In this document: piece after piece, positions 7,976 to 10,034 of the stretch | Layout of the letters: the number at the start of each line of letters is the position of its first letter | How positions within the stretch are numbered: the first letter of the stretch is position 1 | From: Helicobacteraceae bacterium | GTDB taxonomy: Bacteria; Campylobacterota; Campylobacteria; Campylobacterales; SZUA-545 | Direction of reading: 5' to 3' | NCBI GenBank assembly: GCA_031286325.1 | Contig: JAITUT010000024.1 | Span: forward strand, 1 to 41,452 | DNA: 41,452 nucleotides | Program-made: the position numbers and the translations under genes | The notes under the pieces: generated by a model | The model's database searches: none | Told to the model about the DNA's origin: nothing | Seen by the model: the letters and a program-made list of their open reading frames with translations, nothing else

Positions 7976-8413
7976 ATGAAAAGGGTTTTGATCGCTATTT
8001 TACTGGCGACTATCTGCCAAGGCGCGAACGAGGGTTACGAAATTCGTAAGTCTTTCTACGATAGCGGCAAAGTTAGTTACGAAACGCCATATAAAAACGG
8101 CAAACAGGAAGGGGTCGCGAAAGCTTTCTACGAAAACGGCAAGCTTGCGCACGAAACGTCATACAAAAACGGCGACAAGGACGGGATTAGCAAAATTTAT
8201 AGGGAAAACGGCAAAATTTGCGCCGTATTCACATACAAAAAGGACAAGGCGATAAGAGGCGTTTGGCATAATACGAACGGCGAAAAAGAGCCTTTAACCA
8301 AAACCGAGCTGGAAAATTGGGGCAACGGCAAATTCAAGATAACTGGCGGAGATGGGTTGCAGTATGCGTTGCTTGGCAACCTCTTAACCACGATCACGAC
8401 AACTTACAAGTGA
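7976..8413 (+). CDS. Short exported MORN-repeat protein (family copy 1)
   Basis: This 145-residue protein starts MKRVLIAILLATICQGA, a signal peptide shared with the other four copies. Three MORN-type units of 24 residues follow, with the pattern FYxxGKxxxETxYKNGKxxG. The family's C-terminal segment (YKKDKAIRG, NTNGEK, ELENW) comes next. Compared with copies at 16490, 22361, 23042 and 40441 it lacks the N-terminal domain with CxDxxGNLL and CIDGE, and its tail after ELENW is different and lacks the final Cys, so it is probably a deletion derivative. Similar proteins are often annotated as 'YwqK family antitoxin', but no toxin is visible here. The ribosome-binding site is AGAGAGAAG. Two REP-like palindromes follow the gene. 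Confidence 0.75.
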   Translation: MKRVLIAILLATICQGANEGYEIRKSFYDSGKVSYETPYKNGKQEGVAKAFYENGKLAHETSYKNGDKDGISKIYRENGKICAVFTYKKDKAIRGVWHNTNGEKEPLTKTELENWGNGKFKITGGDGLQYALLGNLLTTITTTYK

Positions 8414-8451
8414 GTTGCGCGATCGCTATTGCGGCGAACAATAGATAACGC

Positions 8452-8474
8452 GGGCGAACACAGTTCGCCCCTAC
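8452..8474 (+). repeat. REP-like palindrome, copy 1
   Basis: GGGCGAAC-ACA-GTTCGCCC followed by CTAC forms an 8-bp stem with a 3-nt loop. It is one of six copies in the window. With the opposite copy at 8553 it makes an inverted pair 78 nt apart, the arrangement called a REPIN. The gap 8414-8786 contains only these repeats and no supported gene. Confidence 0.8.
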
Positions 8475-8506
8475 GGCTTGCCAGTTTCCGCGAGGAGCGA
8501 CGTTTT

Positions 8507-8544
8507 AGAGCTACGAAACCCAAATAAAACCTATTATTCCCGCC
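8507..8544 (+). repeat. 38-bp exact repeat, downstream of MORN copy 1
   Basis: These 38 bases, beginning AGAGCTACGAAACCC and ending TATTATTCCCGCC, recur exactly but inverted at 16332-16369. In both cases the segment lies about 100-150 nt beyond the stop of a MORN-repeat gene and in the same orientation relative to it. Confidence 0.85.
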
Positions 8545-8552
8545 GTGTATAT

Positions 8553-8575
8553 GTAGGGGCGAACTGCGTTCGCCC
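8553..8575 (-). repeat. REP-like palindrome, copy 2
   Basis: GTAG followed by GGGCGAAC-TGC-GTTCGCCC is the same element in reverse orientation. The next 60 bases (ATTCCGCGAGGGGCGA and onward to GTCCGCGAAGT) are also similar to the bases after the copy at 17709. Confidence 0.8.
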
Positions 8576-8727
8576 GATTCCGCGAGGGGCGACGTCCATT
8601 CTCGCAAGCGGGAGCTTTGGTAGTCCGCGAAGTAAAATGAACGGACGTTTTGTGCCTCTACCGCTAAGCGAAGTTAGCGAGGCAACAATGCAAAGGGCGC
8701 GAAAGAGTGCTTGAAAATTTAGACGAG

Positions 8728-8786: not shown

Positions 8787-9531
8787 TTAATATCGCCTTA
8801 TTTTTCTAACAGGAGTTGATCCCTCGCCGTATACAATATTCAAACGTCCGCAGTCTCCAAGAGCGCACGCTCTTCTAGCGTCATCTCTCGCTTTTCCGTG
8901 TTCTCTTATTGCCTCATACGCAGTGCTACGATTGTGGTAATATGCAGAAGAATTTGGGTAAAGCGCGATTGCTTGCGTATAATCATCAATCGCTCGATTA
9001 AGGGCGTAAACGCCGCCGGCACTATGATTGGAAATTCCTAGTTCTGCATATGCATTGCCGCGACCGTTGTAAGCTTCGTGGTATTTTGTATTAAGCTCGA
9101 TTGCTTTCGTATAATCTTTAATCGCTTGATCGTAATTTTTCAGTTCATAATACGCACTACCGCGTTTTTTGTAAGCTGAAGCGTCTTTTGGATCAAGCTC
9201 GATCGCTTGCGTATAATACTCTATGTCCGCTACAGGGTTAGCGCAAGCCGATAAACCAAAAGCTAATAAGCAGACAAAAATCGTAAAAACAATGCCGACT
9301 ATGTTGGGTTTGAGCGCGGGTTTGTTGTTTCGCGTATATTGCGCCTGCGTATGCGAACAATTAGGCGACGGGACGTATTGCGGCTGTTGCGACGTTTGAT
9401 ACTGCCGTTCAGTAACCGCGCTAACGCTTAACGCTGTGCTGTGCTGTGCTGTGCTGTGCTGTGCTGTGCTGTGCTGTGCTGTGCTGTGCTGTGCTGTGCT
9501 GTGCTGTGCTGTGCTGTGCTGTGCTGTGCAT
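8787..9531 (-). CDS. Phase-variable TPR membrane protein, OFF in this sequence
   Basis: An ATG at 9529-9531, with AGGAG six bases upstream, is followed directly by 19 CACAG units on the coding strand. In the third frame beyond the tract an open frame of 215 codons runs to TAA at 8787. It has a Gln-rich stretch, a membrane helix (IVGIVFTIFVCLLAFG) ending in LSACA, and TPR units such as AIELDPKDASAYKKRGSAYY, AIKDYTKAIEL and AYNGRGNAYAELG. With 19 units the ATG frame stops at TAG after 36 residues; 17 or 20 units would join it to the TPR frame. Twenty units would give about 249 residues starting with (HSTAQ)n. No in-frame ATG, GTG or TTG lies between tract and helix, so expression should depend on slippage. 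LSAC could be a lipobox, but the long N-terminus favours a single-pass anchor. The interacting partner is unknown. Confidence 0.8.
9434..9528 (-). repeat. Pentanucleotide tract (CACAG)19
   Basis: Nineteen perfect CTGTG units (CACAG on the coding strand) occupy 95 nt immediately after the ATG of the TPR gene. Units of five bases shift the frame at each gain or loss, as in contingency loci of Helicobacter, Campylobacter, Neisseria and Haemophilus. The unit count could be wrong if the sequence was assembled from short reads. Confidence 0.97.
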
Positions 9532-9776
9532 TATGATCTCCTTATAAAGATGATCTGTAATTTTACCAAACTAAAGCTTAAGCCAAATTTCTCTGATAAT
9601 CAAGTTATGACAACTAAAAACAAACAAAATAAAACATTTCAGCAAAAAGCACAGTAGTCTAGCGGCGGAGAGGAATTTTTTGATTAACTCGCAATCTTTT
9701 CGCCTCGCGCGCTTTCAATGCCGCTACTCGCAAACTTCGCGCTCCTCTCTGTAACGCGATTAACCAATGTCGCCTC

Positions 9777-9908
9777 CTACTGCTTTACTAGTTCGTTCGC
9801 TTTTTCAACGTCTTTTAACGCTCGATAGTGATTATTCAGTTGAGAATGCGTAATGCCGCGCATATAGTAAGCCGTAGCGTTTTTTGGGTCAAGCTTAATT
9901 GCTTCCCT
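9777..9908 (-). pseudogene. Remnant of a second TPR gene
   Basis: On the minus strand 43 codons read REAIKLDPKNATAYYMRGIT and continue LNNHYRALKDVEKANELVKQ to TAG. This is a TPR unit closely related to the AIELDPKDASAYKKRG unit of the neighbouring gene. No start codon or signal region precedes it; upstream similarity continues only in another frame. The bases after its stop (9729-9775) resemble those after the intact TPR gene (8757-8799), so gene and 3' flank were duplicated together and this copy decayed. The rest of 9532-10034 holds no other supported gene. Confidence 0.55.
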
Positions 9909-10034
9909 GCGTATTGATCGCGGTTGCCTCTTGATTGCCAAAATCCTTGCGAATTTATCGCGCCAACCTTGCTTTAATTTATCAAAGATTATCCGCTAAG
10001 CCGATTTACGAAGCAAAATAGGCGCGAAGTCAAA

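What the first reader, a model, noticed from the sequence alone, without database searches (positions are those of the whole stretch)
8787..9531. Phase-variable TPR membrane protein switched by a (CACAG)19 tract
The sequence shows an ATG with a good ribosome-binding site followed at once by 19 perfect pentanucleotide units, then a 215-codon TPR frame in a different phase with no alternative start. Frame arithmetic gives OFF for 19 units and ON for 17 or 20. Slippage at such tracts is established for contingency loci, but these usually control surface glycan, restriction or adhesin genes. A TPR protein with a membrane helix and a variable His-Ser-Thr-Ala-Gln N-terminus is unusual, and a CACAG tract directly at the start codon is not one I know.
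Basis: partly seen in the sequence, partly recalled or inferred. Interest (0 to 1): 0.85.

Follow-up and report, generated by a model that had tools for sequence, protein, structure and literature searches.

The report
Pentanucleotide-switched surface-protein gene network
A bacterial gene for a membrane-anchored TPR protein begins with nineteen copies of a five-base repeat that can put it in or out of frame, and it is one of about twenty surface-protein loci in this genome with such a repeat at a start codon, which suggests that the bacterium reshuffles its surface by random ON/OFF switching.

Summary
In detail: ATG, (CACAG)19, then a 214-codon TPR frame in another phase with no start of its own. 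Read from that ATG the gene is OFF at 19 units and ON at 17, 20 or 23. Phase variation is the best reading, but no allele, read or expression data were available. CACAG at a start codon is not new: 42 stretches in other genomes match an ATG-plus-CACAG pattern, and an (STAQH)n methyltransferase active only when in frame is in print (PMC4996451).

The scale is unusual. About 20 pentanucleotide tracts with five different units lie beside ATGs. Four are fused to secreted TPR genes (class A, including this one). At least 16 lie in a short leader ORF running into a conserved hairpin upstream of Opa-like barrels or lipoproteins (class B). Ten of eleven Opa-like genes have this leader; the eleventh has C16. 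Of 199 genomes searched in the order, only three others match a generic pentanucleotide pattern. Class B resembles the Streptococcus gallolyticus pil1 phase-variable attenuator, but its hairpin lacks the U-run. Verdict: a real contingency locus within an unusual phasome; new variant of a known kind.

The parts
9529..9531 (-). ATG start codon abutting the tract
   Evidence: read directly; the same position is the start in the locked paralogue C33
9537..9543 (-). Shine-Dalgarno-like AAGGAGA
   Evidence: read directly
9560..9565 (-). possible -10 (TAAAAT); inference only. The consensus scan found no promoter-like site here
   Evidence: by eye,
9434..9528 (-). (CACAG)19 slippage tract, (HSTAQ)n in every frame
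8787..9431 (-). ON-frame TPR protein (214 codons plus stop), out of frame with the ATG at n=19
9243..9302 (-). hydrophobic segment ending in LSAC, lipoprotein-type signal (by eye)
   Evidence: sequence; paralogues C92a and C93
41391..41414 (-). class B leader hairpin CTCATATAAGGGGGCTTATATGAG; its tract lies beyond the contig end
40441..41274 (-). MORN-repeat lipoprotein downstream of that class B leader

Best explanation
The locus is a translational contingency switch. Slippage during replication adds or removes CACAG units directly after the start codon. When (lead plus 5n) puts the ATG in frame, ribosomes make an N-terminally (HSTAQ)n-extended TPR lipoprotein; otherwise they stop within a few codons. 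It is one of four such 'class A' fusions to secreted TPR proteins (C1, C57, C88, C92). The genome also holds at least 16 'class B' cassettes in which a pentanucleotide tract sits in a short leader ORF upstream of surface genes, so that many surface proteins are probably switched independently. Shown: tract, frames, intact TPR, paralogues and distribution. Inferred: slippage in the population, expression, surface location, and selection for diversity.
For: Tract and frames. Four class A loci have the ON frame open for 214, 222, 487 and 187 codons and the other two frames closed within 1-5 codons. Paralogue C33 has ATG CACAGCAC then the same PSRR..KFAFLIAI signal peptide in frame, that is, a collapsed tract locked ON. 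Tract-free paralogues at C92 and C89 start with their own ATG just before the signal peptide. The TPR family occurs in all 7 genomes of the genus searched, and congener G005 has ATG..C10..TPR, in frame. 42 stretches in other genomes match ATGNNNNN(CACAG)4; by frame 8 are ON, 23 OFF and 11 undecided. The ten I scanned include GT25, HsdM, an N6_N4 methylase, TonB receptors and an acyltransferase. In print: 27 versus 17 copies of ACAGC in a Bibersteinia trehalosi methyltransferase, methylation only in the in-frame strain (PMC4996451, passages).
Against: No reads, strains or transcripts: length variation is not shown. All four class A loci are OFF in the assembly, and 2 of the 10 complete class B leaders are in the long frame; 2 of 14 against 1/3 expected gives P about 0.11. 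Tract lengths in a draft may be wrong. (CACAG)5 is absent from all 13 family relatives searched, so the tract itself is not conserved. The promoter scan finds no site upstream of this gene.
Confidence: 0.82

Rival explanations
1. Decayed pseudogene: the tract expanded neutrally in a dead TPR gene and the OFF state is permanent.
For: OFF in the assembly; all four class A loci are OFF; a degenerate TPR fragment lies just upstream at window 9760-10034.
Against: The 214-codon frame has no stop and strong TPR matches. The layout recurs at four loci with the off-frames closed early. 10 of 11 Opa-like genes of the genome carry a tract leader. Pentanucleotide tracts at ATGs use several unrelated units, hard to explain by drift alone.
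Confidence: 0.12
2. Low constant expression through ribosomal frameshifting, transcriptional slippage or an unrecognised start, with the tract as a flexible N-terminus rather than a switch.
For: Not excluded by sequence; some expression could leak in OFF cells.
Against: No in-frame ATG, GTG or TTG in the first 60 codons after the tract. 5-bp units change the phase with each step, an odd choice for a mere spacer. Collapsed copies (C33 class A, C60 class B) sit in the long frame, 2 of 2.
Confidence: 0.06
3. For class B only: the leader tract changes promoter or mRNA geometry (as reported for some 5'-untranslated tracts) and reading frame is irrelevant.
For: The downstream genes have their own Shine-Dalgarno and ATG 88-374 nt after the hairpin (for C55 the same start is 93 nt after it). 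The hairpin has no U-run; no terminator-like site was found at the L019 locus, and the scattered weak sites at other loci are not at the hairpin.
Against: Units differ in sequence but all are 5 bp and lie 0-8 nt from an ATG. In 13 of 13 leaders with a visible tract end exactly one frame reaches the hairpin's 3' arm, shuffle product about 0.008 though the loci are related.
Confidence: 0.35

Closest known systems
CACAG/ACAGC contingency tracts of Pasteurellaceae methyltransferases (Bibersteinia trehalosi M.Btr188III; Pasteurella haemolytica mod)
   Same: Same repeat unit (rotated), at the start of the coding frame, giving an (STAQH)n N-terminus; ON/OFF by frame (PMC4996451 passages; P. haemolytica seen only as a table row and reference).
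   Different: There it switches DNA methyltransferases; here secreted TPR lipoproteins, with many copies in one genome.
Neisseria opa genes
   Same: Multi-copy beta-barrel outer-membrane proteins switched by pentanucleotide repeats at the 5' end (PMC13183285 passages); the class B barrels match OMP_b-brl 9 of 9 and Opacity 6 of 9 at E 0.01.
   Different: opa tracts are CTCTT inside the signal-sequence coding region; here several units, mostly in a separate upstream leader ORF.
Streptococcus gallolyticus pil1/pil3 leader-peptide attenuator
   Same: Pentanucleotide (GCAGA) tract in a leader ORF followed by a hairpin; only some frames carry the ribosome to the hairpin (PMC3894217 abstract and passages).
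   Different: pil1 has a U-tailed intrinsic terminator; here a 10-bp A/U-rich stem without a U-run, in at least 15 copies, upstream of Gram-negative surface genes.
Poly-G/C contingency loci of Campylobacter and Helicobacter
   Same: C>=10 runs occur in all 7 genomes of the genus, some of them in contig-end low-complexity; the C32 barrel (C16) and G005 TPR (C10) are of this kind.
   Different: The pentanucleotide tracts are found only in this species within the genus.

Membership tests
SSR contingency (phase-variable) locus | short tandem repeat, unit not a multiple of 3, at the 5' end of a coding frame | tested here: met
SSR contingency (phase-variable) locus | unit number decides ON or OFF frame, no start after the tract | tested here: met
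SSR contingency (phase-variable) locus | unit number varies between cells or strains | not testable with these tools
   one genome of the species, no reads; paralogous copies differ (2 to 19 CACAG units), which is not allelic variation
TPR lipoprotein | TPR repeats | tested here: met
TPR lipoprotein | signal peptide with lipobox | tested here: inconclusive
   LSAC read by eye and shared with paralogues; no signal-peptide predictor was run, and the segment lies about 80 residues from the ON-state start
pil1-type phase-variable attenuator (class B leaders) | tract in a leader ORF with one frame reaching a downstream hairpin | tested here: met
   13 of 13 leaders with visible tract end
pil1-type phase-variable attenuator (class B leaders) | hairpin is an intrinsic terminator with U-run | tested here: not met
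   15 of 15 hairpins have no U-run directly after the stem; no terminator-like site found at L019
Opa (Opacity) family (class B barrels) | Opacity PF02462 domain | tested here: inconclusive
   6 of 9 at E<=0.01, best 8.7e-7; the member shown in full is below the curated cut-off; OMP_b-brl is the better match
Opa (Opacity) family (class B barrels) | CTCTT repeats within the signal-sequence coding region | tested here: not met
   tracts lie upstream in a separate leader, other units

The most novel reading that the evidence does not exclude
The genome uses an exchangeable regulatory cassette: promoter, ATG, a pentanucleotide tract of interchangeable sequence, and a short leader ORF whose one long frame drives the ribosome through a conserved hairpin. 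This gives phase-variable, translation-coupled control of at least 15 separate surface genes (Opa-like barrels, MORN and TPR lipoproteins). It would be a multi-locus, Gram-negative counterpart of the pil1 attenuator that works without a canonical terminator, with direct ATG-tract-TPR fusions, such as the reported gene, as its second form.
Probability: 0.45. Interest if true: 0.75.

Novelty: new variant of a known kind. Interest (0 to 1): 0.6.

Why it matters
If true, one small genome would be reshuffling a repertoire of about 20 surface proteins through hypermutable five-base repeats. That would be a case of convergence with Neisseria opa (repertoire) and with S. gallolyticus pil1 (leader design), in a lineage whose relatives use poly-C tracts. 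The fact that several unrelated units serve at the same position in the same cassette would make it testable whether frame, rather than repeat sequence, is what is selected. It also warns annotators: OFF copies such as this TPR gene have no start codon and drop out of ordinary gene calls.

Tried and rejected
Uniqueness of the CACAG tract at a start codon: rejected.

A fused leader-barrel reading frame for class B: rejected. The genes have their own Shine-Dalgarno and ATG 88-374 nt downstream of the hairpin.

The hairpin as a standard intrinsic terminator: not supported. A second stem followed by a T-rich run (mostly TTTTTG) lies just before most class B Shine-Dalgarno sites. It also precedes a tract-free gene at C71 by eye, so I did not build on it.

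Poly-G31 near the C57 TPR gene: judged contig-end low-complexity, not a switch.

Excess of OFF states: 2 of 14 in the long frame, P about 0.11; not significant. For comparison, 8 of 31 decidable loci in other genomes are ON.

Naming the organism: the genome scan leaves out the window's own records. FlgL's best model and the helical-shape carboxypeptidase PF17033 suggest Campylobacterota; that lineage link is recalled, not tested.

No paper on phase-variable TPR proteins or on multi-copy phase-variable leaders in Gram-negatives stood out in the listings. Those are word searches of open-licence papers only and listings were read, so this is not proof of absence.

Full report
OBSERVATION. The minus strand holds AAGGAG, ATG (9531-9529), (CACAG)19 (9528-9434) and a 214-codon TPR frame ending at 8787. 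Chance is excluded: 16 overlapping (CACAG)4 matches against 0 in 100 shuffles. The three frames after the tract run 1, 3 and 214 codons. The ATG reads the second, so the gene is OFF at 19 and ON at 17, 20 and 23. No start codon occurs in the first 60 ON-frame codons, and the ORF listing lists no minus-strand ORF of 60 aa or more there. Pfam places TPR_1 at E 1.8e-17. The hydrophobic stretch ends in LSAC, which I read as a lipoprotein signal; the tract-free paralogue C93 (CLLAFGLSAC) and C92a (LALGLSACANHVADIEEYTQ) share it.

CLASS A. The window is contig C1 of a 2.05-Mb, 96-contig genome. CACAG tracts occur on many contigs. Three more are fused to secreted TPR genes: C57 (n=6), C88 (n=16) and C92 (n=6), with ON frames of 222, 487 and 187 codons and off-frames closed in 1-5 codons; all four class A genes are OFF as assembled. 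The strongest support for the reading frame is a paralogue on C33, with a similar upstream region, whose tract has collapsed: ATGCACAGCAC runs directly into PSRRFFLTARKFAFLIAI and the TPR protein. Paralogues without a tract (C92 third gene, C89) start with their own ATG shortly before the same signal peptide. Of 18 TPR ORFs printed, two carry CACAG tracts (C88, C92); the window gene and C57 come. Of 17 TPR ORFs printed for congeners, one (G005) has a start-proximal tract, C10, in frame.

CLASS B. Most tracts are of another design. A TATAAT-type promoter region, an ATG, a tract and a short ORF are followed by CTC(A/G)TATAAGGxxxCTTATATGAG and then, 88-374 nt on, a gene with its own Shine-Dalgarno (for C55 the homologous start is 93 nt after the hairpin). 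The hairpin motif occurs 15 times in this genome at up to 3 mismatches and 0 times in 6 congeners. The promoter-side motif occurs 11 times, and five further leaders diverge beyond that search (C60, C85, C92a, C45, C71). Ten leaders are complete on one contig, six are cut downstream and five upstream, so at least 16 exist. Units are CACAG, CACGA (GACAC), CAACG and CAGTT, plus a (CACGG)10 block after (CACAG)7 on C84. The 15 genes behind hairpins are ten beta-barrels, two MORN lipoproteins and a third related to them (C33), one TPR lipoprotein (C92a) and one without a Pfam match (C60).

BARRELS. The barrels match OMP_b-brl 9 of 9 and Opacity 6 of 9 at E<=0.01; the best PDB match is NspA at a weak E of 0.033. 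NCBIfam gives sub-cut-off matches to the adhesin Adr (barrel C26a) and the LIC20035 adhesin (window MORN protein). In a search of 14 family genomes the profile finds 11 genes, all in this genome, and none in 13 relatives (two of the 13 rows are fragments: the C35 signal peptide and a signal-peptide-only match on C71). Ten of the 11 have the hairpin leader and a pentanucleotide tract (in C35, C94 and C79 the contig begins inside the tract). The eleventh (C32) has C16 in its own 5' coding region and is OFF.

FRAMES IN CLASS B. In 13 of 13 leaders with a visible tract end exactly one frame reaches the hairpin's 3' arm (stop at +20 or +25). In five of them a second frame stops at +6, inside the 5' arm. 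Shuffled spacers give a product of about 0.008, but the loci are homologous, so this overstates the case. As assembled, 2 of 10 complete leaders (C33, C60) are in the long frame; C60, with two units, is collapsed. All 15 hairpins form a 10-bp stem, the variants being G-U changes. They lack a U-run, and the terminator scan of one locus found none.

DISTRIBUTION. (CACAG)5 is absent from 13 family relatives. A generic pattern for 8 or more pentanucleotide units containing CA matches 4 of 199 genomes of the order: this one with 201 overlapping hits, and three others with 1, 4 and 4, of which one is not a clean tandem. The reversed control also scores in this genome (61 and 100 hits), as expected of AC-containing units, and is 0 in the three others. 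Poly-C>=10 is common in all 7 genomes of the genus, partly in contig-end low-complexity. Elsewhere, 42 stretches match ATGNNNNN(CACAG)4: 8 ON, 23 OFF, 11 undecided. Ten scanned include GT25, HsdM, another DNA methylase, two TonB receptors, an acyltransferase and HlyD-like, DUF4852 and caspase-domain proteins; one had no match.

LITERATURE. B. trehalosi M.Btr188III: 27 copies of ACAGC in frame, 17 out of frame in two strains, N-terminus MPN(STAQH)n, methylation only in strain 188 (PMC4996451, passages). S. gallolyticus pil1: GCAGA tract in a leader peptide, hairpin terminator, longer peptides raise transcription, and the terminator needs its six T (PMC3894217, abstract and passages). N. [quoted passage not shown] P. 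haemolytica CACAG mod was seen as a table row and a reference only.

CONCLUSION. The reported gene is best explained as a translational contingency switch, currently OFF (0.82). It belongs to an exceptionally large pentanucleotide phasome for its order. How class B leaders act on their genes is open: coupling to the hairpin (pil1-like, perhaps through polarity) is my favoured but unproven reading, at 0.45 for the full novel case.

Noticed in passing
window 9760-10034, minus strand: Degenerate TPR fragment (EAIKLDPKNATAYYMRGITHSQLNN..) between flgL and the tract gene, with a stop and no complete ORF.
   Followed up: partly
   Followed up: no
L023 (C55 barrel): The signal-peptide start MKKLLAVV appears out of frame with the barrel after a run of five T, so this copy may be broken or switched a second time.
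   Followed up: no
L026 (C84) 6-90: Compound tract (CACAG)7 followed by (CACGG)10, suggesting unit turnover within a tract.
   Followed up: partly
L029 (C92): The upstream half of the first C92 leader resembles the C88 class A start, while its downstream half is class B, as if halves were exchanged at the tract.
   Followed up: no
L089 (G006:C45): Congener TonB-receptor-like gene (Plug domain) with C14 after its ATG, out of frame as assembled.
   Followed up: partly
window 8400-8700 and class B spacers: Dispersed palindromic intergenic repeats (GTAGGGGCGAAC..GTTCGCCC) recur in the spacers between hairpin and gene.
   Followed up: no
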